Source: an uncultured Pirellulaceae bacterium
GTDB taxonomy: Bacteria > Planctomycetota > Planctomycetia > Pirellulales > Pirellulaceae
NCBI GenBank assembly: GCA_937928555.1
Contig: CALFWR010000021.1
Coordinates: 1 to 64,000, forward strand
Length of the DNA: 64,000 nt
Reading direction: 5' to 3'
Positions 23,619-41,989 of this stretch are shown one piece after another. How positions within the stretch are numbered: the stretch's first letter is position 1; every line of letters starts with the position of its first letter. Position numbers and translations under genes: made by a program. The notes under the pieces are model-generated. The model worked only from the letters and a program-made list of their open reading frames with translations, ran no database searches and had not been told where the DNA came from.

Positions 23619-26600
23619 CTACTTTTTGAAGGAAACATCCAGTTTGGTCTCGATTGAGTCCTTGAAGGTGTTGTTACTAAATTCGAAGTCCGTTTGTCCA
23701 TCGTCTGTAGCAGACTTTTCGAAAAACGAGTCTCGCTGGGAAAATTTGCCGTCATCACCAGCTTCGATATGGCCAGCCAGTTCGCCCGACGATTCTCCCA
23801 AATTTGATCCGGAGTCAAATTGACTCGTACTGGTCAGGAAACTTCCCTCATCCACATCAGCCTGCAATTTTGAGCTGAAGAACGGTGTATTGCCCGGGCC
23901 ACCAGTGGCAGAGAAGCTACTGCTTCCACCGCCAGACGGAAGTCCGAATCCGAAGGGTTGGCCAACCAGTAATCCAAAGATCGCCGAAGCATCCCCAACA
24001 TTCACCACGCCGCTTCCATCCACATCCGAATAGATGTCAAACGCCAGATTGCTCGTATTAACACCAAATGGCAATCCAACCAATGAACCGAATACCAAGC
24101 TGGCATCGCCCACAGTAGTTCGGGCAGTATTCGGGTCAGCCGAACGAGTCGAGTCTCCCGGAAGCACATTGAAATCGAAGTTGAAGTCACCTCCAACAAC
24201 GTTATCTCCAGTGTTAAACCCACTGACACCATTGGTGAATTCGCCATTGAGCCTCGATCCGCTTTCACTCGCCAAGCCATCAACAATCTCCAGACGAACC
24301 CGGTCACTGCCAATCACGCTGTCAAGTTCCAAACGGACCGTGCGGGATCCCGCATCGTAAGTCAAGCCCGTGATGTCTGGCGTATCATTGAGTCCTTGCA
24401 ACTCAAAGTTGCTCAGATTAAGCGTTGATACGTCAACGTCTTCGCTGAATGTCACCAGGATAGTATCCAGGTTGACCCATGGAAGCGTATCGTCCTGGCC
24501 GGCACCGGTTGGAATCGAGTATCCCTGGAATCCTACTGGCCCTGTTGGATCAATCAGGTTGCTGAACGCCGGAGCAAACTCGGTAGAAGCCACTCTCACG
24601 TTAGTGACAGCGAACGAAGTGTCGTTGTCGATGATTGTCGTTGTTGCGATCGTTTCATCAAAACAGATCGCTTCACCATCGAGAAGCTCATTCGCCGGAG
24701 TCGCTCCTTGAACAAACTGAATACCGGTAATCCGAATCGAAATCAGTTCGTCTCCCTCGATCAACAGGTCTTCATTGACATCTACAGTCAAAATTTCGGA
24801 GCTTGAACCAACACCAACGATGACCGAATCGTTAAACTGGAAGTCGCTTCCGACATCCGCAGTCGTGATTTCTTCTCCGGTTATCGGATCCGTCAGAACG
24901 ATTTCAAAGAAGATTTCGATTCCTGCATCGCCCGGGGTGTCTCCCGCTTCGAGAGCGACTGCCGCCCCAGTAGCATCCAGAAGGCTGAACACAAATGTTC
25001 CGTTTGAATCATCCTCTGTCGCATTGGAGGTGCCGGTGATAGCCACCTTCAAGCCATCGCTGGCCGCGATCGTGACCACTGCTTCGTCATTCGCAACATC
25101 AACATCGATGTCCGCGTTGCCGGCAGGATTGCTGATCGAATCCACGATCGTGACAGTGACCTGTTCGGCTGACTCTGCCAGAGTGTCATCAACCACGTTG
25201 ACATCCAGGTACCCATCAGACTCACCCGCTGGAATCGTAATGGTTCCAATGCCGGTGGTGGGATCGAACGTGAATCCACGATTGCTGTCGAAAGTGAAGT
25301 CATTGAAAGGATTGGCCTGACCGTTGATCGGATCAGTATTTGGACTGCTTCCCGTTGGAAGTGCCACCTGGAATTCAATCACAGTGTCAGAATCGCTTAG
25401 CGTCAGATCGCCCGCGTTATCACGCAGGAAGAAGACAAACCTTCCGTCGTCCTGACCTGCCGGATCGGTTTCAGCGGCATCGGGATCAGTCGCTACCACC
25501 GATACCTGACCTTCGTCATCGTCGTCGATCTGGACAGTGTCAGATTGGTTGGCTGAACCAAGCGAAACTTCCGGATCACCGCTGTCAACGCTGACCAAAG
25601 TCAGCGTCACCTGTTCATCGTCTTCCAGCACTCCGTCGCCATCGTCGGCATCACCTGTGACATCGTCGTCAATCACGTTGACAACGACATCGACCGCAGT
25701 GATTTCAACATTGCCCGGGCTGCCCGGAATTTCGACGGTGTAAGCTCCACCACCTAGATTCACCAAAGCGACAGGAGTTGTCGTTCCAGAGACAAATGCC
25801 GTCAGGGAATAATCCGCATCAGGTCCGGCGAATTGAGCATCACCCGAAAGCTGGAACCTGACGACGGTTGCCGTTGAACTTGGGTTGGACTGCGTAATTG
25901 TAAATACGCCGTTATTAAAGACAGGAATGTCCGTTGGTTCAGCCGCTTCATCGTCGGTAGCAACAACCGTGATGACCGCCTGATCGTTGTCGCCTCCGCG
26001 AGTCAAACCGCCATCATCTGCAGTTGGATCGCCAGCATCACGATCATGGATCGTCGCCGTCGAATCATCCGAATCGTCATGGGCACGATCACCCAGTGCA
26101 GAGTCGGAAGCATTCAGGCTGGCCACGAACGTTTCCACACCAAAGGATGGCAGCGTCGTCGCAGCTCCGCCTTCAACGATGTTGTCCTGAACAACACCCA
26201 CGTGAACCGTCTGGGACAATTGCCCGGCATTAAAGGTCACGGTTTGCGAACCACTGTCAAAGTCAGTGCCAAACGGAACAGACGTTTGATTGATCTGGAG
26301 TGATCCAGGTGCGCCATCGACGTTGAAGTTCGCTCCGTTTGCCGTGCCGCCACCAAAGGATACCGTTAGTGGAACATTGACATCAATCGGATTGGACGAA
26401 GTGATCTCAAAGGAAACCGTCGTCAAAGCCGCGTTGTTGACGTAAGGGTTCGCGTTGGTTCCTTCGTCCACGGTCGGATCATTGCCATCGATACCGGTAA
26501 TGGTAAACGTGGCCGTGTCGTTGTCGACAATCAAAGCCTGACCAAAGTTCGTGCCAAGAGACTGGTTGTCCAGAATGACAACTTCTCTGCCATCGGACAG

Positions 26601-29600
26601 CGTCGTTGGCGTCGAACCACCATCGATAATCAGTTGTGCGGTGAACAGTTCGTCAAGTTCGACGAAGACGTCATCGTTGATATCGATTGTGATCGTACGT
26701 GTCAGATCCGTGCCCGAAACACCGCCATTGGCAGGGAAGTTCACCGTGCCGGTGTTTCCAACGGTACCGCCATCATTGTTGATAAAGTCCTCATTGGAGA
26801 CACTTGCATCCAGCGAACCCGCACCCGTTGCGGTGCCATCGCTCAGATTCAGGAACACATCGACATCGATATCGATTGGCTGTGACAGTTCGATGGTGAA
26901 TGTGATTTGACCATCACCCTCGTTGGCCTGAGTATTGACCACAGTGAATGTCGGCAAGTCATTATCGACAATCGCGATGGTCGCACTATCAGCGGCACCG
27001 TCGATCGTGATGTTCTGATCACCGCCGACACCATTGGTGCCCGGAACGGTAATCAACTCAACAGTAACATTTTCAGTATCTTCCTGAGTCAGGTTGTCGA
27101 TAACGTCAAGCGTGATCGGAGCTGAAAGATCACCGGCCGGGATCGTTACTTCGCCAAAGATGAATGGTCCAGCTTGCCCGTTGAGCGTAAAGTCAGCACC
27201 GTAGAACGCCTCTGTATTTGAGACATCGACTGCGAACCGGACAACCGTGTCGGTTGAACTCACTTCACTAAGCAGGACGACAAACTGACCATCGTTTTGA
27301 CCTTGAGGATCCGTTTCAGCTGCGTCCGGATCTGCCCCGTCTGCGGCGTCACTGGAAATCGAAACCGTAGCAACGTCATCATCAAGGATGGAAACCACAC
27401 CGGTTCGCTCTGCCAGGTCTGAGTGCAGCACAACCGCAGGGTTGTTGGCACCACTATCAACCGCCGTGGTGGTGACTTCGACCGTTTCGGTCAGTTCGAC
27501 AATCTCATCGTCCAGAGCGAAGACAATGAACGTCGCTTCAGCATCCTCGCCTAGCGAGAAGTCGGGGTCGATACCATTGAAAGCCGGAATCACAACCGTG
27601 TCGACAATGCTGCCAAAGTCAAAATCAGCACCCAAGGCAGCAGTTCCACCGGTCACAGCAAAGGTCACCTCGACATCGGTGTCGCTGGCCAGACGCTGGG
27701 TATTGTCGTCCTGATCCACCAGACGCAGAACGTATCTCGCCTCGTTCTGATCGCCAAAACCATCTTCCAGAGCAATTCCGTCCAGAACGTCCAGTTGCAA
27801 CTCACCAATATCGGTGTCCTCGATAACGATCGAGGACGATCCACCAGCGGTGATGCCAGGACTGCCAGTCTGAACGCCGTTGACGGTCAGAGTGGCCGTT
27901 TCGTCGTTCTCAATGATGAAGTCATCGAGCGTGACCAGGTCGATCAGCACTTCGGTCTGACCCGGAGCAAACGTGACGTCGTATACCGTGGCACTGCTAC
28001 CAACATTCGTCAGCGATGCACCACCGATTCCGGAAGCTCCGGCCAGCTCAATCACGTAGTCACCCTGATCGGTGGCTGTGTCAGCGGTACCAAACGGAGC
28101 CACGACCGCGTCACCGCCGAGCGTAAACCGGACGGTTGTCGCGGTTGTGCTTGGGTTGGACAGGGTCAGTGTGAACTGTCCGTCGTTCCCGGGGCTGTCG
28201 GGTTCGATCGCAACGCCATCGCTAACCGATGGTGTCACCGTCCCGCCATCATTATCAAAGATATTGACTGTGGCCGAGAGATCAGTGCCCAATACTCGGT
28301 TGGAAGCCGCGAAAACGGCGGTACTATCTACGATCGACGAACTGTTTTCGACCGCGGACGTCAGTTCACTGTCCAGGCCGGTCAAGGTTACGATCACAGT
28401 TTCCGGATCAATGTTTTGCTCGTTGAGCAGGTCATCGATCACATCCACATCCAGCAACACAAAGCTCTGGCCGGCTGGAATAACAATTTGACCGTCGATG
28501 GTAAATTCGCTGGAAGTACCTGCGTTAAAGGTCGTCGCTCCAGTGAACCCGTCCAGATCTGCAAAGTCCTGCGGATTGGTCGTGTTCGGATTAAGGCTAA
28601 TGTCATCACCCAACGATGCCGTTGTCGCCGTTCCAGTTACCACGTAGTTGACAATCGTGTCGCCAAACTGGAACGGATTGTCAATCGTGATCGTGAATTG
28701 GCCGCTGTCGCCAGCACCGGTTCCCGGTTCAGCCGCGTTTTCATCGGTGGCTGCGATACTGACACTGAACGTTTCATCATTGATCTCGACTCGGGCCACA
28801 TTCATGCCCATGCCTTCGACGTAGATGTCTTCCCAAGGATTGTCTTCGTCAAACTGGAAGTGAATCAAACCATCGTCATCGCCAGAACCGCCTCCATCAG
28901 TAGTGAAAGAACTGACCGATGATGAAGGAGCAACATCAAGTTCAATCTGCAGGTCACCGACAACACCATCGTTGTCATCAGCGTCGGTCATGTCTCCATC
29001 GAAGTCCCGATCGTCGGTCGCGACACCAAAGCTTGGGTCGAGGCTGAGTTGAACGTACTCGTCACCCACATCCAGCGGATTGGTAGAACTTCCCGGCGAT
29101 TCTGCCAGCAATTCCACGTCGATGAACTGTTGGTAGGCGCCTGAACCAGCACTGCCAGCGATTCCGCCGTTACCAGTGAAAGTGATTTCGCCAGCGTACA
29201 GGACTCCTGGCCCTGGAACGATATCAACGAATCCGGGAATCACGAAATCAGCACCAAAGGATGCGGTGCTGGCCGCATCCAGCAGGACGCGAACGGTCGT
29301 GTCGGTTTCACTTTCAATATGTTGGCCCGTCAACGGATTAACCAGAGAGACAACGAACTGACCGTCTTCACCTGGTGACGCACCTGGCTGGGTCGATTCG
29401 GTTGCATCGCCATTGTTTTCAATAATCACCTTGGCGACGTCGTTGTCGAAGATTGTGACCGTGTCGCTTGCCGAAGCACCAACGCCGATCACTGAGTTAT
29501 CCGTTCCAAGGACCTCGATGCGGACAAATTCGTTCGGTTCAACGATCGAATCATCCGCCACATTGACAGTGATCACCGCACCGGGGTTAAAGTTCCCTCC

Positions 29601-32600
29601 CGGAATAACAACCGTATAAACTCCTGGCGAAACCAATGTCAGATCGTTGGCCGCAGGCGCCGAAAGCGTGAAATCTCCGGCTTCAGCATCGGTTGTCACC
29701 CGAAACTCTACCGTCGTGTCACTGACACTAGGCTGCGTCAAATCGATATGGAACACACCCGGATTAAGAGCTTCGTCAACGCCATTGGTTTCTTTGGCAA
29801 TTGAATCGACAGCGTCAATGGAAACCTCTGCCGACTCGTCGTCAACAATGACCACGAATCCGGTGTCCTCATCAGTCGAGTAATTCGGATCGGCACTCGT
29901 TACGACGGTGATCGCAGAATTACTGGTTTGATCAAGGCTAACAATAACGGTCTCATCACCTTCAAGAACCGAATCATCGATAACGAATACCGATGGATTG
30001 GTGCCCAATGAATCCAACGCCGCTGATGAAGTTCCTGCCGGAATGAAAACGTTACCGTCCAGGGTAAGAATATCTTCGCCGTTGGTTGCCGTGCTGGCCG
30101 AATCAAAAACGTAGTTAATCGTGGTGCCCGACTGGCTGGTCACAGGATTGCCATTGGCATCCCGCAAGCTGACCACAATGTCCTTGTGATCGGCCGTTGA
30201 AGTTCCTGGCTCGCGTGCTTGACCCGGATCGCTATCCGTATCGTCGAGTGCTTCGGCAAGGGTGTTGTCAGTGCTGACAAACACGACCGCTGTGTCGTTG
30301 TCGACGATGTTCACTGACGCGTGCAAGTGCGTGCGAACATCAATTTCCAGGTGATTCAGGTTTTGAACACCTGGAAGTGCCGATACATCAGCAACAACTT
30401 CTGAAGGTTGTAGTGCCACAAACCCTGTCGCTGGCAAATCACCAAAGAACACACGGCGAATCGTCTCGACTCCGGCGCCGCCAGGTGAAGTGTCGGTCCA
30501 GTAGACAAAGTCGTTCTTCAGATCCAGGGCGATGCCGCTGGGGAATCCAGTGCCAGAACTGGCAATCGTCTGAAGGTTGCTTCCGTCAAGATCCGCACGC
30601 TGAATCGTGTCATTGGCTGCATTGGTCCAGTAGACCTTACCGCCTTCAACATCCAGGGCGATTGATTGCGGGCTGCCAGGATTGGTAGCAGAGAACTGAA
30701 CAATCGTCTCGATGCTGGAACCATCAAGGTTCGCTCGCGAAATGCGATCCAGACCATCGTCGACCCAGTAAATCACATTGTTGACTTCATCGATTGCCAG
30801 ATCATCCAGATCCGACACGCTGTCTGGCAGATCCAGCAGATCCTCGATCACGCCACTGCCATCCTTGCGTGCTCGGTGCAACTCGGAGGTATCTTCATCA
30901 ACCCAGTAGACAAAATCGCCGGCGACGACAATCCCGCGTGGATCAAAGGAAGTATCGACAATTCGTTCTGCAGTGCCGGCGATGACCCGTCCATCAAATC
31001 CAAGCTGGGCTCGGAAGATACCCTGAACGCCCGGATCGTTGCCGCTGTAGTAAATGAATCCCTCTTCTCGATCGATCGAGATTCCAAATGGATCCGAATC
31101 GCCTAAAACAAGGGCATCGGTGTTGAGAATCTGTTCCAGACCCGTGCCGTCAATATCAACGCGGCCAATGCCATCGGAACCGCCGATGCCAGTCACGTTA
31201 TCGGTGAAGAAGGCAAACCCAAGATGAATGTCTTCGTCGCCATCGACAACCGAATCCAACCACAGCGAAACCACTTCCAGATCTTCGATCTGGGTATCGT
31301 TGAAGGTATCAACGACCACCCTCACCGATTCTTCACCGGCCGGGATGGTGACCTGGAACTGGCTGCCGTCGGTGCTCGTTGGCGTCAAGTCGACGCCCGT
31401 AGCAGTTGTCAACTGATAGTCCGCGATCAGGTGGTTTTCAATCGCCACGTTCAACGAGAACGAATCAACGGTTGTGATGTTGGCATCATCAACAACGACC
31501 CGGATCGTGTAGGTGCCGGCATCGAGTCCGGCGGCAAACACGCTTGATGCAATTCCCAGCGAATTAGCCCCGGAAGTGCTAACTCCATCAAACACCTGGA
31601 TCGTACCCGAGCCCGAATCGAATCCGATGTCGACCAGATCGCCATCGTTGAGAACGGTAAACGTGAACGTGTACGTCGCATCGTCAACACCGTTGATGAT
31701 CGTGTGTGGCGTGCTTGCTCCATTGGGCGAGAAGAACAGCGAACCACCAAAGCCTGAGCCGGGGAATCCGTCAATATTCTGGAAGGCCGTACCGGTTGCC
31801 GTCTGGGCACCCAAGAATGGGGTTGCGGTATTATCGATTTCGAACGCGACGATTGTGTCGGTGTCCGAAGTCGTGGCCGTGGTGCCATCGGGGCCTCGCA
31901 AAGTAATGTCAAACCCGGCATCGACGTCGTCATTCAGGTTATCCGCACCATCAGAACTGGGTTTGACTTCGACAAAACCCGTATCGTTATCGCTGATCGT
32001 GACAAACGCGTTGGTTTTGACGAACTCAAGCGACTCCACGTTGTGGTCAAGATCGCCGAACAAAAACGATTCAGCGTCCAACGCTGAAGTCGAATCATCA
32101 AACACGTGCAGATCCAGATCCGAGTCGTCGTTGTCCGCAGCGAAGAACGAATTGCCGGCAAAGTTACCATTTTCGCGATGCGCTAGAGCATTGAAATCGA
32201 AACCACCTGATGTCCCGGCGACAACATTCCCGGCTACGTCCCTGAGCGTTTCGTTTTCGCCATGGAACAGGACGCCGTCGACTGGATTGAATCCAAGTGA
32301 ATCGGTCTGCCCACTGTCTGCCAGTTGAATGCCCCCCGAGATCGCACCGGTCGATTGATTGATCGTGTAAAGTACACCACCAAAGGTCACGCCACGCAGG
32401 GCGCCACTTCCATCAAATTCGATATCGCGGAAGTCATCGTCTCCAAGAGACCCGACCAGTTCGGCGATACCGGTAGCTGGATCAACGATGACCAAAGCAC
32501 GGAAAATGTCGTCTGTTTCGACAACGGCGTACAGATCATGTGTTCCCGGTTCCAAGGCCAGTCCAAAACCACCATTGACGGCCACGCCATCGATCGTAAT

Positions 32601-35600
32601 GGCAACCGAACTGTCAGTACTGCCATCATTGTTGAAATCGATGTTGTCACTGACGTCGGTATTGAGGACTCGCAGGAACTCATCATCCGGGCTAACCGAA
32701 TACAGATCCCTGCGAACGGTAACGTCGCCATCATTTGGATTCGCGGCCGTAACACTCTCGATCTGAATCGAGACACGTTCCAGATCCTCAATGATGTTGT
32801 CATCGGTGATATCCACGTTGATGATCGCATAGCCATCGGCTGCCGGAATCGTAACGGTTCCGGTCAACAAGGTGAAATCATCGCCATTGGTGGCGTCGCC
32901 ACCGATTTTGTACGTCACTGTCAAATCGCCATCGGCGGTTCCAATTTGGGCTCCCAACGGCGAGTCCGGATCAAAGACCGGACCATCCCCATCCAAGACA
33001 AATGGCAAGTGGACGATAAAGGATGCGTCAGCACCCCCTTCGGTGCCCGCAGGATCTAGGGCCTGAACCTGAACCGTTGGGTCAGGATGGATTTTGACAA
33101 CTGCCGAATCGCCATGCAGGCTGACTCCGCTGTTGGAAGAAATGATCGAATTGACTCCGACTTCGGCCTGCTCGACGAACTCCTCCAGAACGGCATCGTT
33201 GATCACGTTCAGGTCTACAAACTCGGAAGTTCCCTGGTTCGCAGCAAAGGTAACGACGGTTCCCGATAGGTTGTAGTCAGCACCCAAAGTCGCATCTGCA
33301 AAGACGCCATTGCCCAGCAAAACACCCAGATCAACTTCGACGGGCGCGTCGCTGAATCCGGTCAATCGAATTTCGAATTGGCCGTTATCATTGCCTTCTC
33401 GAGCGTAAGGATCCGACGCTTCGATAACGACTTCAATCTCGTCATCGTCAAAAATGGTGATCGACGCTTCCGTATCAGCCTCGCTATCGTCTACCTGGAC
33501 CTGCGTCGTCAAAGCGTCGGTGCTGGTCAACTGAAGATCGACCGTTTCGTCGCTTTCATTGGTCGGCCGATTGAAGTCATCAAAGACCTCAACGTCAATA
33601 TCTGCTCCCGACGATCCTGCCAGAATAACAACCTCGCCCGAGAGCTGGCGATAGTCCGCGTTGACGCCATCATTGGTCAATGCCGGATTGGCTGCGGAAC
33701 TTGGATTCAACACATCGTAGAACACGGTGATGTCGATGTCCGTGGTCACCAAATTGCCACTGGCATCAACCAGGTTGACCCGGAACTGGCCATCGGTATT
33801 TGCTTCCGCAGCGTCCTGAACGGCAACGATTTGAGCGAAAGCCAGGTCGTTGTCACGGACTTCAATCACATCGGTTGCCAGTTCCGGGTCGGTCGTGACC
33901 TCAATATTGGAATCCGACTGGTTGCGATAAATGCCCTCCAAAGAAACACGAACGAATTCGGTATTTTCAATCCCAAGATCATCCAAAGCCGCGATGTTGA
34001 TCTCGGCTGATGGTGTGAAGGCCGGGATGCGGACCACACCCTGCAGCCCAAACAGGTCATCGCTATTGGCAATTGTGGTGTCCGTTGAGGCGTTAAACAG
34101 AATCACGTCCCCGCCAAGGATGCTGCTCAGGTCAATGTCAGCCAAAATGGTCGATGGTGAAACACCAGCCGGGAACACCAGTTGGAAAATCACATCCGTA
34201 TCGGTGTCGCTGACGTGGGGGCTGTCGAGCGAAACGGTAAACACACCGTCCTGTCCGCCTTCCTGGGCAAAGGCCGTTCCATCAATCGTGACACTCGACG
34301 CATCTTCGTCGTCGATTGTGACAACGCTGGAAACGTTATCGATTGTGAAATCCCAGTCGCCCGAGTTTGGAGCGTCATCAATGGCCCCGTCGAGCGTGAG
34401 ATCGACCGATTCCTGATCTTCGATGATCGTGTCGTCATTTACGTCAACGGTGATGGTGACTTCCGACTGTCCTGCAGGGACGGTCAGCAGGAATACATTA
34501 GGAACGCTGGTCGATGTGATGCTACCGTTGTTGCTGACGACCAGTTCGTAGTCATCACCCAGATCAGCAGCACCTGAAACAGTAAATTGGACAACGGTGT
34601 CAATTGAGCTGGTGACCGGGGCAGCGTTGGTGCTGGATCGCTGCAAGCTGACGGTAAATTGGCCATCATTGGGGTTAGAATTGAACAGCGGATCTTCGTC
34701 AGCCTGGTCGTCATTGGCCACCAGATTTACGAAACCGGAATCGTTGTCGGTGATGACAACAGCCTCATCAATTTCGCCGCCTTCGTGGATGCGGATATCG
34801 GGATCGCGGCGCTCGAATCCAGTCAACTCAAAGTTAACGCTTTCGGATCCGAAGGATTGCGAGGTTCCGCCTTCCAGGATTGCGTCATCGATTGGGTCGA
34901 TGTTAAACGAAGTCGACGTTTGCCCAGCAGGAATCAGAACGCCTTCGTCCATGTTCGAAATCGAAACATGCAGCGTGTAGTTGCTGCCATTGAATAGTGG
35001 CAGCGTGCGGGTTTGCGCCGTGGGAAAGCCGCTGCCACCGTTCGCATTATTCCTGAAACGTGAAACTTCGATGAAGTAAGTGCCCGCGTCCAATACATCC
35101 GTACGAATGCGAGCATCCTGAACGCCGGAACTGCCAGCATCTCCAGCGTTGTTGTTGTTGCCGAAACGCGCATCGGCCAACTGGCCCGAGTCCGTGTTCA
35201 GGATCCTAAGATGCGAATTGAAGTTGGCGCCATCAATATCCGCAGTGATTCTGCCGTCCTCGTACAACACAACCTCAAAATAGTGGATGGCAGGTCCACC
35301 GGTCACCGAACCATTGATGGTGTTGTGTGCCTCGGTTGTCGAGTTCTGAATGTTTGGATCACTTTGTAGCGAAAAGAAACCATCAACCCGCTGTGCATTG
35401 GCAAGCGATGTGTTGCTGCCGTTGTCGTTGATCGTGGCGCGGAAGTCTGTGCCGGGAACCGCATCGCCTGTGATGTCAACGGACACCAAAACGTCCTGAC
35501 TGCTGGTGGTGGGAGCCCCAGGATTGTCAGCCGTTCGATCGGTTTTCAGCTCAACAACAAAGCCGCCCGAATCCTGAACACCTTCGTTGGCGTCGGCATC

Positions 35601-38543
35601 GACTGTTTCAATACTGACTGAACCGAAGTCATTGTCTTCGATCTTGACGGTGCCGGTGCGATCCGAAGAAATTCCGACAACATTGGCCTGAGCCCCGCTG
35701 TCAGAGCGAATCCTCAAAACAGCTTCTTCGATACCCGGACTGTCGGTCAAACCACCTTCGATGATCGTGTCTTCGATAGCTGTCAACTGGATATCAATGC
35801 TCGTTTCGCCGGCAGGGACGGTGACTGTAACGCGTCCATTGGGAGCCACTGTCAACGGGACATCAAAGACTCCAGAGCCCGGTACGGATTCCACCTGCAA
35901 CGAGTAATCGACGCCGGCAACCGCTTCGCCGTCCACGGTGTCAATCACCACATTCAGATTGGAAGTCAATTCAGTGTCGAGCGTCACGCGGAACAGGCCC
36001 GTATCGCCACCCTTGAACACACCCTGGGCACCGGAGAATACAAAGTCGCCTCCGTTCCCGCCGTTGTCAGCATTGTCTTCGGTATTGACGCTGATTTCGA
36101 TGCGATCCAGCACCAGAGTCGGATCAGCTTCGAAAGTGCCTTCGAAATTCGCAGATCCATCGGGGAATACAACCGAAGGCGCGGCGACGATTGATCCGTC
36201 AGTGTAGAAGAAGCGAACGCTAACCGAGGCATCCCCGGCATCCGATGATCCTGCCGTACCAGTAATGATGACTTCGTCGTACTCATTGTCGAAAACGTCA
36301 ATGAAGAACACATCCACCACGCCCTGAACAGTTGTTCGAGTTGTTCCACCGCCATCGGTCAGAACAGAAGCCCCGCTCGGGTCAACCGCAGGGAACGCCA
36401 GTGGGCCTTCGGCCGCGTGCTCATCGACGGCTTCGAGTGAAACGACTGCAGCCGTTTCGTTGTCTTCGATCACAACAGTATCCGCTGCCGGATTAGTGAA
36501 GTTCACTTGTTCAGGCGTCTGACCGGCCACCGAAGGACCGTCGATCGTCGCATTGGTGATTTCGACGGTAAACGTTTCATCGCCTTCGAGCACAAAGTCA
36601 GGCACAATATCAATGTCCAACTGAGCCGACGTTTGCCCGGCACCAATGACGATCGTGCCGACAAATGCGTTACCCGCCAAGCTGGAAGTGCCATCACCCG
36701 GACCATCGGGATCCAAAACAACAAAATCCCCATTTGGGCCAGGGCCGGCAGTCGCAGTCACCCCTTCGATGCGGAAGTCAATCCTCGTTGGCGTAGTGGT
36801 GGCTTGATCAATCGTGAACGTGACCTGAGCCTGAACGATACTGTCGTCATTGGTCGGATCATTATCGGAAAGATTGTCTTCCTGTGGGTCCGGATCGTTG
36901 ATGTTGAAGGTCACAGTCTCGACCCGCGTATCGATCGAGGTACCGCTGGATTGATTCGTGACAGGGGCTATTGCGTTGCCCGCGAGGTCGGCTGCTCCGG
37001 AAACGTTAACCAGCACATCGGCAAGTTCGATATCGTTATCGACAAGCGTGTAAGTGACGCTCAAGGTGTCGTTGGCATTACCACCAGTGTTGCTAAACAC
37101 CGGTGCCGACGGCGCTGTCAAAGTTGCAGCAGCGAGTGCCTGCGGTAGCGCAATGGCGGGGATAACGCTTGGGTCAAGCGATTCGTCAAAGACAATCGTC
37201 AGCGTAACGGTCCCGGGGATATCTGATTCATCGATGAACGTGTCGCTGAAATCAATGCTCGTAATCGTTGGCGCAACGGTTTCCTTGATGATGGTGTCTG
37301 TCGCGGTCGCGGTGTTTCCCGCGCCGTCAGTCGCAGTAATCGTTGCGGTGATCGGACCATCGACGAGCGAGCTTAGATTTTGAGAGCCAGCTCCGTTGCC
37401 AACCATAGAAACAGTTATCGTGTTCGTGCCGTCGCTGAAGGTGACCGTTGCAGGACTTGCGTCCGCATCCAAACCTGCAACAGTGAAATTACCTGGCACT
37501 GCTTCAGTGGCATTGATGACACCGTCAACGTCATCGAACGTCACAGACAAATCACTGCCAACATCGGCGGTTGTATCCAGGGTCAGTGGCGGCCCCGCGA
37601 CGTCAGCGGTGTTGCCCGCACCATCAGTCACAGACAGCGAAGTCGCGATTGGCCCATCGGCAAGTGTCGAAAGATCGACGGTTCCCGCCGAAGCAAGCGC
37701 CGTCACAATCATGCCCGCACTGTCTTCGAACGAAACGATGGCGGCTGCAACAGCAACGTCGGTATCAATTCCGCTTGTGGAAAAACTAACCGCTGTTGAT
37801 TCCGCAGCATTGATCGTCGTGTCGGTGACGGACAGGGCAAGGTCAGCACCTACGTCCGCAGTTGTATCCAAAATCGCACCCTGAACATCAGGAGCGCCCG
37901 TTGGTAACCCCGAACCATCCAGCTCTGCTGCTGTAAAACTAACAATGCCATCGGGAGTTCCAGTGGCATCAATCGCAGGCGATGTAAATGCTCCAGTCCC
38001 ATCTGCAGTCACGGTGATTGTGCCTGTGATCCCGGGGCCAGAAATGGCGACGTCTGCGCCGGCAGCTACGCCGTTACCGACAACAGTAAAGCTCGAAACC
38101 TCACTGGAGTTAATGATGTTGTCCCCGGCAACGGACAGGATATCAACAGCCAGCATCTGCTTGGGCTCCATCGCCTCGTAGGTCTTGGCGCTCATGTCGC
38201 TCTTGTGCGAACTGCGGGCGGTTTTGCCCTTTTTGCGTTTGCGATTGGTGCGGCGGCCAATGATTCCGTGACGTGCCATCGTGACGGCCCGACGCTGTGT
38301 CGGGATTGGCTGTGAGAGGCTGCTGAGCAGACCCGTCAAAGCCGCCCAGAAGTAGCGGAAACGGCTAATGGTCAGAGGAATGAAACGATTGAAGCAGCGA
38401 TTCCAGCGTTCGAAGCGATCTTTTCGTTCGCGATACAGGGCCATCCAGTGCCGATTACTCCTTTGTGCCCGAACCTGTGCCTTTTCTGTACGACGGTTGT
38501 AGCGTGATCCAAAATTGGCTTGACGGTTTCTGCGCGCAAACAT
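23619..38543 (-). CDS. Giant Calx-beta/Ig-like surface protein with LDL-receptor B repeats and dockerin
   Basis: One uninterrupted frame of about 4,974 codons (about 0.5 MDa). ATG 38543 is chosen because CGGAGAGA lies just upstream; the frame also opens at a GTG at 38612. The N-terminus is strongly basic with one hydrophobic stretch (YFWAALTGLLSSL), then YEAMEPKQMLAVD (around 38150), a degenerate LEPR-XLL motif. Three or so Ig-like repeats follow (TTADVGADL, DGAGNTA), then about twenty Calx-beta domains recognisable by ends such as VTIFDNDVAKV and VVITDNDSGFV followed by an acidic start. A YWTD/LDL-receptor B beta-propeller-like block lies near 30430-31060 (NVIYWVDDGLDRISRANLDG). The C-terminus has a dockerin-like pair of calcium loops (about 23930-24190, SDVDGSGVVNVGDAS). 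A calcium-stiffened adhesin or sheath role is inferred. Confidence 0.92.
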   Translation of the reverse strand: MFARRNRQANFGSRYNRRTEKAQVRAQRSNRHWMALYRERKDRFERWNRCFNRFIPLTISRFRYFWAALTGLLSSLSQPIPTQRRAVTMARHGIIGRRTNRKRKKGKTARSSHKSDMSAKTYEAMEPKQMLAVDILSVAGDNIINSSEVSSFTVVGNGVAAGADVAISGPGITGTITVTADGTGAFTSPAIDATGTPDGIVSFTAAELDGSGLPTGAPDVQGAILDTTADVGADLALSVTDTTINAAESTAVSFSTSGIDTDVAVAAAIVSFEDSAGMIVTALASAGTVDLSTLADGPIATSLSVTDGAGNTADVAGPPLTLDTTADVGSDLSVTFDDVDGVINATEAVPGNFTVAGLDADASPATVTFSDGTNTITVSMVGNGAGSQNLSSLVDGPITATITATDGAGNTATATDTIIKETVAPTITSIDFSDTFIDESDIPGTVTLTIVFDESLDPSVIPAIALPQALAAATLTAPSAPVFSNTGGNANDTLSVTYTLVDNDIELADVLVNVSGAADLAGNAIAPVTNQSSGTSIDTRVETVTFNINDPDPQEDNLSDNDPTNDDSIVQAQVTFTIDQATTTPTRIDFRIEGVTATAGPGPNGDFVVLDPDGPGDGTSSLAGNAFVGTIVIGAGQTSAQLDIDIVPDFVLEGDETFTVEITNATIDGPSVAGQTPEQVNFTNPAADTVVIEDNETAAVVSLEAVDEHAAEGPLAFPAVDPSGASVLTDGGGTTRTTVQGVVDVFFIDVFDNEYDEVIITGTAGSSDAGDASVSVRFFYTDGSIVAAPSVVFPDGSANFEGTFEADPTLVLDRIEISVNTEDNADNGGNGGDFVFSGAQGVFKGGDTGLFRVTLDTELTSNLNVVIDTVDGEAVAGVDYSLQVESVPGSGVFDVPLTVAPNGRVTVTVPAGETSIDIQLTAIEDTIIEGGLTDSPGIEEAVLRIRSDSGAQANVVGISSDRTGTVKIEDNDFGSVSIETVDADANEGVQDSGGFVVELKTDRTADNPGAPTTSSQDVLVSVDITGDAVPGTDFRATINDNGSNTSLANAQRVDGFFSLQSDPNIQNSTTEAHNTINGSVTGGPAIHYFEVVLYEDGRITADIDGANFNSHLRILNTDSGQLADARFGNNNNAGDAGSSGVQDARIRTDVLDAGTYFIEVSRFRNNANGGSGFPTAQTRTLPLFNGSNYTLHVSISNMDEGVLIPAGQTSTSFNIDPIDDAILEGGTSQSFGSESVNFELTGFERRDPDIRIHEGGEIDEAVVITDNDSGFVNLVANDDQADEDPLFNSNPNDGQFTVSLQRSSTNAAPVTSSIDTVVQFTVSGAADLGDDYELVVSNNGSITSTSVPNVFLLTVPAGQSEVTITVDVNDDTIIEDQESVDLTLDGAIDDAPNSGDWDFTIDNVSSVVTIDDEDASSVTIDGTAFAQEGGQDGVFTVSLDSPHVSDTDTDVIFQLVFPAGVSPSTILADIDLSSILGGDVILFNASTDTTIANSDDLFGLQGVVRIPAFTPSAEINIAALDDLGIENTEFVRVSLEGIYRNQSDSNIEVTTDPELATDVIEVRDNDLAFAQIVAVQDAAEANTDGQFRVNLVDASGNLVTTDIDITVFYDVLNPSSAANPALTNDGVNADYRQLSGEVVILAGSSGADIDVEVFDDFNRPTNESDETVDLQLTSTDALTTQVQVDDSEADTEASITIFDDDEIEVVIEASDPYAREGNDNGQFEIRLTGFSDAPVEVDLGVLLGNGVFADATLGADYNLSGTVVTFAANQGTSEFVDLNVINDAVLEEFVEQAEVGVNSIISSNSGVSLHGDSAVVKIHPDPTVQVQALDPAGTEGGADASFIVHLPFVLDGDGPVFDPDSPLGAQIGTADGDLTVTYKIGGDATNGDDFTLLTGTVTIPAADGYAIINVDITDDNIIEDLERVSIQIESVTAANPNDGDVTVRRDLYSVSPDDEFLRVLNTDVSDNIDFNNDGSTDSSVAITIDGVAVNGGFGLALEPGTHDLYAVVETDDIFRALVIVDPATGIAELVGSLGDDDFRDIEFDGSGALRGVTFGGVLYTINQSTGAISGGIQLADSGQTDSLGFNPVDGVLFHGENETLRDVAGNVVAGTSGGFDFNALAHRENGNFAGNSFFAADNDDSDLDLHVFDDSTSALDAESFLFGDLDHNVESLEFVKTNAFVTISDNDTGFVEVKPSSDGADNLNDDVDAGFDITLRGPDGTTATTSDTDTIVAFEIDNTATPFLGAQTATGTAFQNIDGFPGSGFGGSLFFSPNGASTPHTIINGVDDATYTFTFTVLNDGDLVDIGFDSGSGTIQVFDGVSTSGANSLGIASSVFAAGLDAGTYTIRVVVDDANITTVDSFSLNVAIENHLIADYQLTTATGVDLTPTSTDGSQFQVTIPAGEESVRVVVDTFNDTQIEDLEVVSLWLDSVVDGDEDIHLGFAFFTDNVTGIGGSDGIGRVDIDGTGLEQILNTDALVLGDSDPFGISIDREEGFIYYSGNDPGVQGIFRAQLGFDGRVIAGTAERIVDTSFDPRGIVVAGDFVYWVDEDTSELHRARKDGSGVIEDLLDLPDSVSDLDDLAIDEVNNVIYWVDDGLDRISRANLDGSSIETIVQFSATNPGSPQSIALDVEGGKVYWTNAANDTIQRADLDGSNLQTIASSGTGFPSGIALDLKNDFVYWTDTSPGGAGVETIRRVFFGDLPATGFVALQPSEVVADVSALPGVQNLNHLEIDVRTHLHASVNIVDNDTAVVFVSTDNTLAEALDDTDSDPGQAREPGTSTADHKDIVVSLRDANGNPVTSQSGTTINYVFDSASTATNGEDILTLDGNVFIPAGTSSAALDSLGTNPSVFVIDDSVLEGDETVIVSLDQTSNSAITVVTSADPNYSTDEDTGFVVIVDDESAEVSIDAVDSIAKETNGVDEALNPGVFHIDLTQPSVSDTTVEFRVTTDAEAGDFTLSAPAANDLTLVSPGVYTVVIPGGNFNPGAVITVNVADDSIVEPNEFVRIEVLGTDNSVIGVGASASDTVTIFDNDVAKVIIENNGDATESTQPGASPGEDGQFVVSLVNPLTGQHIESETDTTVRVLLDAASTASFGADFVIPGFVDIVPGPGVLYAGEITFTGNGGIAGSAGSGAYQQFIDVELLAESPGSSTNPLDVGDEYVQLSLDPSFGVATDDRDFDGDMTDADDNDGVVGDLQIELDVAPSSSVSSFTTDGGGSGDDDGLIHFQFDEDNPWEDIYVEGMGMNVARVEINDETFSVSIAATDENAAEPGTGAGDSGQFTITIDNPFQFGDTIVNYVVTGTATTASLGDDISLNPNTTNPQDFADLDGFTGATTFNAGTSSEFTIDGQIVIPAGQSFVLLDVDVIDDLLNEQNIDPETVIVTLTGLDSELTSAVENSSSIVDSTAVFAASNRVLGTDLSATVNIFDNDGGTVTPSVSDGVAIEPDSPGNDGQFTLTLSNPSTTATTVRFTLGGDAVVAPFGTADTATDQGDYVIELAGASGIGGASLTNVGSSATVYDVTFAPGQTEVLIDLVTLDDFIIENDETATLTVNGVQTGSPGITAGGSSSIVIEDTDIGELQLDVLDGIALEDGFGDQNEARYVLRLVDQDDNTQRLASDTDVEVTFAVTGGTAALGADFDFGSIVDTVVIPAFNGIDPDFSLGEDAEATFIVFALDDEIVELTETVEVTTTAVDSGANNPAVVLHSDLAERTGVVSILDDDVATVSISSDAADGADPDAAETDPQGQNDGQFVVLLSEVSSTDTVVRFAVDVSNTEAFYGADFTLNGQAGPFIFGEVTIPAGDLSAPITLDVIDNLTQEDTENVTVELITVPGTNGVGGDQNITIDGAADSATIAIVDNDLPTFTVVNTQANEGDGQITFTIELSQPIDIDVDVFLNLSDGTATGAGSLDASVSNEDFINNDGGTVGNTGTVNFPANGGVSGTDLTRTITIDINDDVFVELDELFTAQLIIDGGSTPTTLSDGREVVILDNQSLGTNFGQALIVDNDTATFTITGIDGNDPTVDEGTNANPYVNNAALTTVSFEITSSNPIDVNVPLTVSFGGGTANGANFNVDGAPGSLQINQTSVPFGTDFDSGSQTVTFNAGQLSQTVHVGVVQDNIVEGGAATTLPSFGVETFVASLNASDSALGDRAHDDSDDSTATIHDRDAGDPTADDGGLTRGGDNDQAVITVVATDDEAAEPTDIPVFNNGVFTITQSNPSSTATVVRFQLSGDAQFAGPDADYSLTAFVSGTTTPVALVNLGGGAYTVEIPGSPGNVEITAVDVVVNVIDDDVTGDADDGDGVLEDDEQVTLTLVSVDSGDPEVSLGSANQSDTVQIDDDDEGQVSVVATDPDAAETDPAGQDDGRFVFFLRDNAGDLTLSDSDTVIEFQVALPTGSSPNTDPINGQANPFNDFTFDSNRGFTFDPTTGIGTITIPAGESDGYLDVNVVDDTLAESAEQVTVTIVDSISNPAGNADIDVDVANDEAVVTIAASDGLKVAITGTSNATEDDSNGTFVFSLLDATGAAVALEAGDTPGDAGIEIFFEIVLTDPITGEEITTADVGSDFQFNDSVIVGVGSSSEILTVDVNEDLLIEGDELISIRITGIQFVQGATPANELLDGEAICFDETIATTTIIDNDTSFAVTNVRVASTEFAPAFSNLIDPTGPVGFQGYSIPTGAGQDDTLPWVNLDTILVTFSEDVDVSTLNLSNFELQGLNDTPDITGLTYDAGSRTVRLELDSVIGSDRVRLEIVDGLASESGSRLNGEFTNGVSGFNTGDNVVGGDFNFDFNVLPGDSTRSADPNTARTTVGDASLVFGSLVGLPFGVNTSNLAFDIYSDVDGSGVVNVGDASAIFGLLVGQPFGFGLPSGGGSSSFSATGGPGNTPFFSSKLQADVDEGSFLTSTSQFDSGSNLGESSGELAGHIEAGDDGKFSQRDSFFEKSATDDGQTDFEFSNNTFKDSIETKLDVSFKK

Positions 38544-39342
38544 TTGCTGTCTCTCCGATGGGAAGTGAGTCTGTTGGGCCGTAGCCCGAGGTCTTATTCG
38601 TTTTGGACTCACCTCCCGGAAGTAAGATCACCTGCTGCTTTTGCCTCACAATAGGTGATCACTTTCAGGAAGAGACATTCGCGCTACGCGAACGTATCGA
38701 TGGCAAGTCGCTCTTCATCACCCGTTTTAGACGAATCCGCTGTGCCACAAAGGAACGTGCCCGGAACAGTCCATGTGCCGGTCATTCCTTAAGCACAACT
38801 CAAACAGAAAAACCCGACAAAACAAACTGGTCGGTACGATCAAAGTACCTGTCAACAATTGCTTGCGAGCGAATAGCGATCGTTCGCACGATCAAACAAG
38901 CCGCCAAGTCATCGCCAGCAGGTTGCCAGCCCGTGCAGCCGTGCTTTGAAATCAAGCGGCATGCAATCAACAACAACAAGCACCGAATTCAGCATCCAGT
39001 TCGTGCCGGTTGTTTGCCGTCAGTGCGCTGACTCTACTTTCGCCTCTGCCGCACCAAGGAGCTGCGGTTCGACACAAGAACGCAATTCGTTCTGGTTCGC
39101 CTGCCGGGCGAACTGGCCTGGACTCTGGGCTCGTTGCCAGCAGCGAGGGTTACCGATTTCGAAAACACTGCCAACCTCCGTTTGCTCGCCCTGAAACCAG
39201 AACGAACCCTGTTCCGCTTCAGGCGGCCAATCACAACCTACGGTAACCCTGAAGAGCGGCCACGCGGTCGGTGTTAACTGCAGCAGCGGTCACCCTGAAA
39301 CAGCTTTCAGATGCCCTCTGGACACGCAGCGCCGTCTTTTAG
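38544..39342. other. Intergenic region upstream of the giant gene
   Basis: About 800 bp without a convincing gene. The plus-strand frames here have unnatural composition. It should hold the promoter of the giant gene at its left end. I see no clear hairpin or operator. Confidence 0.6.
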
Positions 39343-39529
39343 CCCGGATTATTCACGACGACGGGCGTTGATTCTGCGTCTGGCCAACAGGAGCGAGGGA
39401 AAGGCTGAATTTCAACAAGAAATTTGAATCATCCAGGAGATGAAAACCACAGCGATCGTTTCAACGCATCCGAGTCGCGGATCAGTGTCGGAACTGATTC
39501 TAACGCCCACGCCTCGTGAATAATCCGGG
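39343..39529 (-). repeat. Dispersed MITE-like element, copy 4 (subtype B)
   Basis: Perfect 16-bp inverted ends and 187 bp in length. A 5-bp direct repeat TTTAG flanks both sides. The interior is nearly identical to copy 3 and inverted relative to copy 5. It lies directly upstream of the first XRE regulator. Confidence 0.93.
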
Positions 39530-39711
39530 TTTAGATGTATTTACATTTTGACAACCGGACTGATTTTTTTCGGCAAATGTCCGGAAAAATGAGCTGTTTT
39601 GAAAAAACTTTCACGCTATCGGAATTTTTCTATTCGATGACGTGCCGGAATTGTGTCTTAAGCAGTGAAGAGCGTTTTATCATCCAAACAACACTACAAC
39701 GGGATGTACAG

Positions 39712-40347
39712 ATGGGTTATCCGTGCAATACGGGAAACAAGTCGTTTCGGTGCAACGGAGATTTGCTTCGTTTTTATCGTGACCGAAAAGGAATGACACA
39801 AAATCAGCTGGCCTGCGAGGCCGGCTACTCGGTTCGTCTGGTTGGCAAAGCGGAAGCCGGCCAGCCGATCCGAATGGAAACAGTTGAGGTTCTTGCCGAG
39901 GCGTTGAGCTGTCCCGAGCAGACGATTGGTCCGATCGACTTGATGACCGACCCGGTTGCCTTGGCAAAGAAATACGTTTCGGCTCAGTCATTGCAGCGGG
40001 AACAGTTTGTTGCCCAAGTCGATAACATTCTTTCAGCAAATTTTCAGTTGCACGTCCTTGCTGACTACAACCGACTTGGCCTGAAGAACATCTACCATGG
40101 CGTCGGTGGTTTGAGCGAGTACTATGGTCGCTTGTATCGGTCGCCCAATGGGTTCAGCGGAAACGCGGCTGGGATTCAATCACAATTCTTTGCATTGGGC
40201 AATGAAGTTTTGGTATGGTTCCAGCCGGATGCTTCGGTTGACCTCAGTGGTGAATTTCTGTTTCGTTCAACCACCAAACTTCATTTTTCTGGAGGCATGT
40301 TGGTGGAACAGGAAGACCGAATTTCAAGTCAAAAGAGTATCGCCTGA
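39712..40347 (+). CDS. XRE-type HTH protein with NTF2-like C-terminal half (paralog 1)
   Basis: The product has 211 residues from ATG 39712 (MGYPCNTGNKSFRCNGDLL); the frame is open upstream to 39535, right at the end of a dispersed repeat. Residues about 17-75 form an XRE/HTH_3 DNA-binding domain (LLRFYRDRKGMTQNQLACEAGYSVRLVGKAEAG). The rest (about 90-205, with FQLHVLADYNRLGLKNIYHG and GGLSEYYGRLYR) looks like an NTF2/SnoaL-type alpha+beta pocket domain, which could bind a small ligand. It is a clear paralog of the next gene, 145 bp downstream. It is probably a ligand-responsive transcription factor; the target is unknown. Confidence 0.8.
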   Translation: MGYPCNTGNKSFRCNGDLLRFYRDRKGMTQNQLACEAGYSVRLVGKAEAGQPIRMETVEVLAEALSCPEQTIGPIDLMTDPVALAKKYVSAQSLQREQFVAQVDNILSANFQLHVLADYNRLGLKNIYHGVGGLSEYYGRLYRSPNGFSGNAAGIQSQFFALGNEVLVWFQPDASVDLSGEFLFRSTTKLHFSGGMLVEQEDRISSQKSIA

Positions 40348-40492
40348 TTGATTGGCCTTTGACGCCGACCGTGATCAGCCAATGGCCTCCTGGCCTTGCT
40401 CCCTGAGCTGTCACACAAAACGCAGCGACAACTTGACTCCCCTCCTTCCCCTTTGACTGCCCCTCTGCAGTTCCTTCCTCACGCCAGACGCG

Positions 40493-41206
40493 ATGATGAA
40501 TCGAATGCAAGAACACAGGTACACATTGTCAATACAAACAGGAAACGAGAACGGGATGGGACGGCGTAGCCAAAGTAGATCATCAGGGAGTTCGCTTCCC
40601 TGCAACGGGCGTCTGATACGGCTCTATCGGGAACGAAAAGGGCTCACTCAAGCCGAACTGGCACAGCAATCGGGTTACTCCGTGAGGTTGATTGGGAAAG
40701 CGGAGGCTGGCAAGCCGATCAAACTCGATACGATCGAGATTCTTGCCGAAGCGCTTAGCGACGCAAATCTGATTTTGAAACCCTGTGACCTTATTTCGGC
40801 ACCGGCAACGCTTGCCGAAAAGTACGTGCAAGAACTGTTGCAACACCAAGGCAATGTGGTGCAGGAGATTCGGCACTTCCTTGCCGATGACTTTGAACTG
40901 CGGTGCTTTTCGAACGACGAATCACTCGCGATTCAGGGCTTCTATCAGGGTTCGGCGGGGCTGTCGCAGTATGCGGACAAACTGTTCCGGGTGGTCGAGC
41001 TACCCGATGGGATCGACGTTTCGTCATGCTGCAGTCTTTTCCCGGTCGAAGACGATGTCGTTGTCTGGTATCTGTTCCAACCGCTTCTCAGATCCGAAGT
41101 CGATCCCGCGGCCGCCAAAGCCGGACGTTCTGTGAGCCTGACGACGAAGCTTGGTTTCCGCAACGGACTTCTTTTGTCCCAGGAAGACCGGATTGTCGTT
41201 CATTAA
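40493..41206 (+). CDS. XRE-type HTH protein with NTF2-like C-terminal half (paralog 2)
   Basis: The product has up to 237 residues; later starts at 40505 or 40556 are possible. The layout matches paralog 1: LIRLYRERKGLTQAELAQQS in the HTH helix pair, GYSVRLIGKAEAGKPIKLDT shared almost word for word, then the same alpha+beta domain (DFELRCFSNDESLAIQGFYQ, AGLSQYADKLF, SLTTKLGFRNGLLLSQEDRI). The TAA stop is followed directly by the first base of a dispersed repeat. Duplication followed by divergence is evident. The two could form a heteromeric regulator or control each other. Confidence 0.8.
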   Translation: MMNRMQEHRYTLSIQTGNENGMGRRSQSRSSGSSLPCNGRLIRLYRERKGLTQAELAQQSGYSVRLIGKAEAGKPIKLDTIEILAEALSDANLILKPCDLISAPATLAEKYVQELLQHQGNVVQEIRHFLADDFELRCFSNDESLAIQGFYQGSAGLSQYADKLFRVVELPDGIDVSSCCSLFPVEDDVVVWYLFQPLLRSEVDPAAAKAGRSVSLTTKLGFRNGLLLSQEDRIVVH

Positions 41207-41393
41207 CCCGGATTATTCACGAGGCGTGGGCGTCAGAGTCAGTTCCGACAGTGATCCGAAACTCTGACCCGATCAAACGATCACTGTGGTTTTCATCTAC
41301 CGGATGATTCACATTTCTTGTTGAAATTCAGCGTTTCCCTGACTTCTGTTGGCCAGACGTAGAATCAACGCCCGTCGTGGTGAATAATTCGGG
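41207..41393 (+). repeat. Dispersed MITE-like element, copy 5 (subtype B)
   Basis: The element starts CCCGGATTATTCACGA and ends TGGTGAATAATTCGGG (two mismatches to the ideal), 187 bp. TTAA flanks both sides. Internal inverted repeats (CAGTGATC / GATCACTG, GTCAGAG / CTCTGAC) would fold a transcript. It fills the gap between convergent genes: it starts directly after the XRE stop codon and ends 7 bp before the trmL stop. Confidence 0.92.
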
Positions 41394-41400
41394 CTTAAAA

Positions 41401-41880
41401 TTAAAACGAAAGCCCCAACTGACGGCACGCTTCGAAGCCTGCCACCGCCACTGCGGAACTCAGATTGATACTGCGAACATTTTCATGCGTTGGGATTCGC
41501 AGCAATTGATGGTCGGGATAGGTGCCGGTCAACGTCGACGGCAAGCCACGCGTCTCGCAGCCAAACACCAGTGTGTCGCCACGTTCAAATTCGACATCCA
41601 GATAACTGCGAGTGGCGAATCGCGAATACAGCCAAACCCTTTCGGACACGGGATTCAGTCGCTGCAAAAAGTCGTTCCAGTGATCAGCGATTTCCCATTC
41701 GAGATGTTGCCAGTAGTCCAGGCCCGCGCGGCGAAGCGATTTTTCGGTAACCTGAAACCCAAGGGGCCTGATCAACCAGAGTTTGGCCTGTAAGGCGACG
41801 CAGGTCCGCCCAACGGCGCCCGTATTGGGCGGAATTTCCGGTTCGTGGAGAACAATATTTAACTGCGGTTGGTACTTCAC
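41401..41880 (-). CDS. trmL: tRNA (cytidine(34)-2'-O)-methyltransferase
   Basis: The product has 159 residues, the size of the minimal SPOUT enzyme TrmL, which methylates the wobble ribose of tRNA-Leu. The N-terminus LNIVLHEPEIPPNTGAVGRT, the middle RRAGLDYW and the knot motifs LVFGCETRGLP and RIPTHENVRSINLSSAVAVA are diagnostic. The gene is divergent from ispG (109 bp apart). Confidence 0.95.
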   Translation of the reverse strand: MKYQPQLNIVLHEPEIPPNTGAVGRTCVALQAKLWLIRPLGFQVTEKSLRRAGLDYWQHLEWEIADHWNDFLQRLNPVSERVWLYSRFATRSYLDVEFERGDTLVFGCETRGLPSTLTGTYPDHQLLRIPTHENVRSINLSSAVAVAGFEACRQLGLSF

Positions 41881-41989
41881 GGGGACATTTCTGGCGTGCG
41901 AAAGAAGTGCATTGTAGGAAAGCCTCCGTTAAACAAGAATACGTCCGGCAGCATCCTTCCAACCCGGCCTATCAACAACCGGCAATTCC

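What the first reader, a model, noticed from the sequence alone, without database searches (positions are those of the whole stretch)
39343..41393. Paired XRE/NTF2-like regulators bracketed by inverted copies of the same element
Two tandem paralogs with the same HTH plus NTF2-like layout lie between copy 4 (reverse) and copy 5 (forward) of subtype B. The outer ends would let the whole 2-kb unit move like a composite transposon. The upstream copy ends 6 bp before the open frame of the first gene and so could provide promoter sequence. HTH fused to an NTF2-like pocket suggests a small-molecule sensor. The function is unknown.
Basis: partly seen in the sequence, partly recalled or inferred. Interest (0 to 1): 0.62.

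Follow-up and report, generated by a model that had tools for sequence, protein, structure and literature searches.

The report
Regulator pair hit by two MITEs
Two neighbouring gene-regulator genes in a planctomycete bacterium are not a jumping unit: they sit beside a giant surface-protein gene, as they do in related species without the repeats, and the two matching DNA repeats around them are separate insertions from a family of about 730 copies in this one genome.

Summary
Two 187-bp copies of one inverted-repeat element (39343-39529 reverse, 41207-41393 forward) bracket two tandem paralogues, each with an XRE-type HTH and an NTF2/SnoaL-like C-terminal domain. The composite-transposon reading is not supported. 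Copy 4 has its own 5-bp target duplication (TTTAG/TTTAG), copy 5 a near one (ATTAA/CTTAA); the outer ends do not match. The 1.7-kb core is single-copy in this assembly. The elements are a non-autonomous MITE family: 1115 TIR ends here, 0-6 in each of 27 congeners, about 730 copies by extrapolation. Inverted bracketing within 2.2 kb occurs 17 times in 824 kb, so it is routine. Gene 1 most likely starts at 39712, 182 bp from the element, not 6 bp. Best reading: local regulators, probably of the divergent giant gene, that received two unrelated MITE insertions, one in the shared intergenic region and one at the gene 2 stop codon. Control of the giant gene is inferred. The element's parent transposase was not found.

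The parts
39343..39529 (-). MITE copy 4, 187 bp, 16-bp perfect TIRs
   Evidence: folds as a hairpin from the TIRs inward, z -5.1
39338..39342 (.). left target duplication of copy 4, TTTAG
   Evidence: exact match to 39530-39534
39530..39534 (.). right target duplication of copy 4, TTTAG
41207..41393 (+). MITE copy 5, 187 bp
41202..41206 (.). left flank of copy 5, ATTAA, which contains the TAA stop codon of gene 2; near-TSD with CTTAA at 41394-41398
   Evidence: 4 of 5 match (16% of shuffled pairs reach this)
41394..41398 (.). right flank of copy 5, CTTAA
39712..40347 (+). gene 1: XRE HTH + SnoaL/NTF2-like protein, 211 aa (mechanical ORF opens at 39535)
40556..41206 (+). gene 2: XRE HTH + SnoaL/NTF2-like paralogue, about 216 aa from the homology-supported start (mechanical ORF opens at 40493)
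23619..38543 (-). giant extracellular protein gene, about 4974 aa, Calx-beta and LDL-receptor class B repeats, divergent from gene 1 (mechanical ORF opens at 38612)
38544..39711 (.). divergent intergenic region (1168 bp; 976 bp without copy 4 and one TSD) that received copy 4
   Evidence: 838-1206 bp in three congeners
41401..41880 (-). trmL-like tRNA methyltransferase, convergent neighbour beyond copy 5; not next to the pair in congeners

Best explanation
The two genes are a local tandem pair of one-component regulators (XRE helix-turn-helix fused to a SnoaL/NTF2-like regulatory domain) that belongs to a conserved locus with the divergently transcribed giant extracellular repeat protein (23619-38543). 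The most likely mechanism, inferred, is that they bind operators in the shared intergenic region and control the giant gene and themselves, with the SnoaL-like domain modulating DNA binding by ligand or intramolecular contact. The two flanking repeats are independent insertions of a MITE family that multiplied in this species (NTNAN target, 5-bp duplication, mobilised in trans by a transposase not identified here). Copy 4 landed in the shared intergenic region and copy 5 at the stop codon of gene 2. Shown: family membership, private target duplication of copy 4, single-copy core, synteny without elements. Inferred: regulation of the giant gene, ligand sensing, any effect of copy 4 on expression.
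For: TSDs: copy 4 TTTAG/TTTAG, copy 5 ATTAA/CTTAA, outer pair TTTAG/CTTAA differs at 2 of 5. In an 824-kb sample 45 of 84 full elements have an exact private 5-bp TSD against 1.9 in shuffles, with T at position 2 in 45 and A at position 4 in 43. Core 39534-41202 found once. Burst: 563+552 ends here, at most 6 in any of 27 congeners. Density 124 per 824 kb, 2.4% of bases, about 733 copies extrapolated; 17 inverted neighbour pairs within 2.2 kb. Synteny: tandem pair divergent from homologous giant in G015, G025 and G002; N-terminal matches E 7e-15, 2e-23 and 1.5e-22, A4 alignment, no element ends next to these pairs (G025 has none genome-wide). Co-occurrence in the genus: 4 of 28 genomes have the tandem pair and the same 4 have the strong giant hits. 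Divergent giant extracellular genes also in G159 (with a second, very divergent regulator gene in tandem), G228 and G042; background 4 of 338 genes in all sampled stretches, 3 of 187 in this genome.
Against: Copy 5's duplication is imperfect, and 16% of shuffled pairs reach a 4-of-5 match. The window pair are each other's closest relatives (100/99 and 100/100 support) and do not group with the pairs of G002, G015 and G025, so orthology of the regulators rests on position, not on the tree. Most family members outside the genus are not next to a giant gene (other neighbours include a citrate transporter-like gene, a sulfatase and an amylase). No shared operator motif was found across the four intergenic regions; only short blocks between G015 and G025. 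No expression or binding data.
Confidence: 0.8

Rival explanations
1. Composite transposon: the two MITEs in inverted orientation moved the gene pair together as a 2-kb unit, using a transposase supplied in trans.
For: Correct geometry, intact TIRs at both outer ends; MITEs flanking and moving resistance cassettes and integrons are described (PMC10969869).
Against: Copy 4 has its own exact TSD, copy 5 a 4-of-5 one, and the outer ends differ. Core single-copy. Tandem pair next to the homologous giant in congeners without elements there. Copy 4's best match elsewhere is 96% identical, higher than its 89% to copy 5. Such bracketing is routine in this genome.
Confidence: 0.05
2. The pair was brought or kept by the MITEs for regulatory reasons: copy 4 acts as promoter or operator for gene 1, or the proteins bind the element family and act as its silencers or regulators.
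For: Copy 4 lies between the giant gene and gene 1; promoters inside MITEs are known for Correia and others (PMC10969869).
Against: Homologous regulators occur in genomes with no such elements. No sigma-70-like match in 38500-41900 (0 found, 1.6 expected). Likely start codon is 182 bp downstream.
Confidence: 0.12
3. The regulators act on distant genes and adjacency to the giant gene is inherited chance.
For: Most relatives have other neighbours; within-genus cases are not independent; the window pair is not clearly orthologous to the congeners' pairs.
Against: Same divergent arrangement in four species of the genus and in three other genera, background 1.2-1.6%; binomial tail about 0.004-0.006 for 3 hits in 20-24 loci outside the genus.
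Confidence: 0.3

Closest known systems
Bacterial MITEs (Correia, ERIC, Chunjie, MITEAba12; review PMC10969869)
   Same: 50-500 bp, TIRs, target duplication, no transposase gene, often between genes, nested and shortened copies, hundreds of copies
   Different: No matching parent IS found; sequence, NTNAN target and TIR CCCGGATTATTCACGA were not matched to a named family here; about 730 copies is at the level of the 711 ERIC copies reported for Photorhabdus
ECF sigma factors with C-terminal SnoaL_2 domain (ECF41, ECF56; PMC7730460)
   Same: A DNA-binding transcription factor with a fused SnoaL_2/NTF2-like C-terminal domain that modulates activity
   Different: Here the DNA-binding part is an XRE/Cro-type HTH and not sigma2-sigma4; not members of the ECF groups
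XRE-family one-component regulators (HTH_3, HTH_31)
   Same: N-terminal HTH over the Pfam cut-off in both window proteins
   Different: SnoaL-like C-terminal domain; no paper with at least three of the terms helix-turn-helix, SnoaL-like domain, XRE family and NTF2 was found
Composite transposons
   Same: Two related elements in inverted orientation around cargo genes
   Different: Flanking elements encode no transposase, copy 4 has a private TSD, no shared outer TSD, core single-copy

Membership tests
MITE (non-autonomous TIR element) | Terminal inverted repeats | tested here: met
   16-bp perfect TIRs in copy 4, 14/16 at one end of copy 5
MITE (non-autonomous TIR element) | Target-site duplication per copy | tested here: met
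   45 of 84 exact 5-bp, null 1.9; NTNAN
MITE (non-autonomous TIR element) | Short, no transposase gene, high copy number | tested here: met
   187 bp, 124 copies in 824 kb, 1115 ends genome-wide
MITE (non-autonomous TIR element) | Shares TIRs with an autonomous IS | tested here: inconclusive
   IS1380-like copy L087 has CCTAGTCC ends and the IS4-like relatives have GAATGGCACT ends: neither matches. Only 17% of the genome was read in full
Composite transposon | Single TSD at the outer ends and none private to each flanking element | tested here: not met
   TTTAG vs CTTAA outside; private TSD exact for copy 4 and 4 of 5 for copy 5
Composite transposon | Whole unit found at more than one place | tested here: not met
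   core single-copy in own genome
Composite transposon | Cargo absent from the orthologous site in relatives | tested here: not met
   tandem pair present beside the homologous giant gene in three congeners
XRE-family regulator | Cro/C1-type HTH over curated cut-off | tested here: met
   HTH_3 and HTH_31 in both proteins
SnoaL/NTF2-like domain | Domain hit in the C-terminal region | tested here: inconclusive
   No direct Pfam hit in window proteins, but 11 of 16 family members hit SnoaL_2, relatives' C-terminal profile hits both, PDB NTF2-like hits by profile
SnoaL/NTF2-like domain | Cone-shaped alpha+beta fold with pocket | tested here: inconclusive
   AlphaFold pLDDT 45 and 38 with two sequences

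The most novel reading that the evidence does not exclude
A dedicated class of HTH-SnoaL one-component regulators, often in tandem, controls divergently transcribed giant extracellular repeat proteins in Planctomycetota; in this species a recent MITE burst inserted a copy into that control region.
Probability: 0.4. Interest if true: 0.5.

Novelty: new member of a known kind. Interest (0 to 1): 0.36.

Why it matters
It removes a false mobile-unit claim and replaces it with two checkable facts. One: a single species carries roughly 730 copies of a 187-bp MITE that is nearly absent from 27 congeners, a recent bacterial MITE burst. Two: the gene pair is part of a conserved arrangement with a giant surface-type protein, which gives a first candidate regulator for such giant planctomycete proteins and makes the link directly testable by binding and deletion.

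Tried and rejected
Composite transposon: rejected on TSDs, single copy and synteny. IS1380 parent (L087): TIR CCTAGTCC, rejected. IS4 parent (L089/L178): an element end lies about 90 bp outside the likely IS end, but related IS4 copies end in GAATGGCACT, which L089 also has, so rejected. Transposase near a lone end at C91:33152: none recognised among the ORFs listed. AlphaFold on the pair and on the C-terminal fragments: too low to search folds, so no fold search was run. Homologue scan of genome contigs with a single sequence gave only HTH matches. Common operator across intergenic regions: none found by BLASTN. Paper searches for planctomycete MITEs, for planctomycete giant proteins with Calx-beta, and for HTH-SnoaL regulators found nothing. 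An amylase gene first counted as a divergent giant (L262) was dropped after Pfam.

Full report
What is there. The region holds two inverted 187-bp copies of one element (39343-39529, 41207-41393) with the TIR CCCGGATTATTCACGA. Between them lie two tandem genes whose products are 41% identical and carry an XRE-type HTH. So the raw observation is right.

The elements. A 16-bp end search gives 563 forward and 552 reverse hits in the 4.87-Mb genome, but 0 to 6 in each of 27 congeners. An HMM over an 824-kb sample of this genome (nine contigs, most of them read almost in full) finds 124 copies, 94 nearly full length, covering 2.4% of bases, or about 733 copies if extrapolated. The contigs were chosen because they were already known to hold copies, and many contigs end inside an element, so the figure is rough. 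Of 84 copies with both ends and flanks, 45 have an exact 5-bp target duplication (1.9 expected from shuffled flanks), with T at position 2 in all 45 and A at position 4 in 43. This is a MITE family with target NTNAN. The strand folds as a hairpin from its ends inward (z -5.1). Shortened forms exist, down to a 36-bp TIR-only copy with a TTGAG duplication (C14:81036), and copies nest in one another.

Not a composite. Copy 4 has the private duplication TTTAG/TTTAG. Copy 5 has ATTAA/CTTAA, a 4-of-5 match that 16% of shuffled pairs would also reach. The outer ends, TTTAG and CTTAA, differ at two positions. The core is found once in the genome. In the sample, 44 neighbouring element pairs lie within 2.2 kb, 17 of them inverted, so a bracketed gene pair is expected somewhere by density alone.

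The genes. Alignment with 14 relatives puts the likely start of gene 1 at 39712 and of gene 2 at 40556. The element therefore ends 182 bp, not 6 bp, before gene 1. The simple promoter scan found no sigma-70-like site in 38500-41900. The C-terminal half has no direct Pfam hit in the window proteins, but 11 of 16 family members hit SnoaL_2, a C-terminal profile made only from relatives hits both window proteins, and the family profile hits NTF2-like PDB chains. The structure predictions failed for lack of sequences.

The locus. Upstream and divergent lies a gene for a giant protein of about 4974 aa with Calx-beta and LDL-receptor class B repeats and a YEAMEPKQMLA stretch near its N-terminus that aligns with the congeners' (T/S)YE.LEP..LLA. 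In G015, G025 and G002 a tandem HTH-SnoaL pair sits divergently from a giant gene with a homologous N-terminus (E 7e-15, 2e-23, 1.5e-22); the G025 gene is complete at 5674 aa, the other two run off their contigs. No MITE end is seen beside those pairs. The intergenic distances are 894, 838 and 1206 bp, against 976 bp here once copy 4 and one TSD are removed. Within the genus the tandem pair and the strong giant hits fall in the same four genomes, though the giant profile was built from those four. Outside the genus, three of about 22 loci (G159, G228, G042) also have a divergent giant protein with Calx-beta, PKD or cadherin-like repeats. The background for genes of similar size is 4 of 338 over all sampled stretches and 3 of 187 in this genome, giving a binomial tail near 0.004-0.006. 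This test was made after seeing the pattern, so it is a lead. The window pair are sister sequences and do not group with the congeners' pairs: they were duplicated or replaced in this lineage, or evolved fast.

Mechanism. The best reading is a pair of one-component regulators acting on the shared intergenic region, with the SnoaL-like domain modulating activity as in SnoaL_2-fused ECF sigma factors (PMC7730460). That control is inferred. Copy 4 inserted into this region; copy 5 inserted at the TAA stop of gene 2 and leaves the stop codon in place. Whether copy 4 alters expression is unknown.

Limits. The parent IS was not found. Only part of the own genome was read in full.

Noticed in passing
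G000 whole genome; nine contigs read at length: About 730 copies (2.4% of bases) of a 187-bp MITE in one species, nearly absent from 27 congeners: a recent burst with no parent transposase found.
   Followed up: partly
G000 C14:81036-81071 (L154): A 36-bp element made of the two inverted ends only, with an exact TTGAG duplication, hinting that the ends alone suffice for mobilisation.
   Followed up: no
L013 (C109), L014 (C35), L022 (C40), L177 (C96 end), end of C21: Several contigs start or end inside a copy of the element, so the repeats break the assembly and copy counts are rough.
   Followed up: no
L089:1258-2416 (C96 end): An IS4-type transposase gene is cut by a MITE insertion at the contig end, and a lone CCCGGATTATTCA end lies about 90 bp beyond the IS4 end.
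   Followed up: partly
L273:9474-10873 (G159): A regulator pair with overlapping ORFs directly divergent (219 bp) from a 3085+ aa Calx-beta/PKD/cadherin giant in another genus; the second member is very divergent.
   Followed up: partly
L132-L134 (G015): A close relative has short (about 80 bp) elements with nearly the same ends, so the end family is older than the burst.
   Followed up: no
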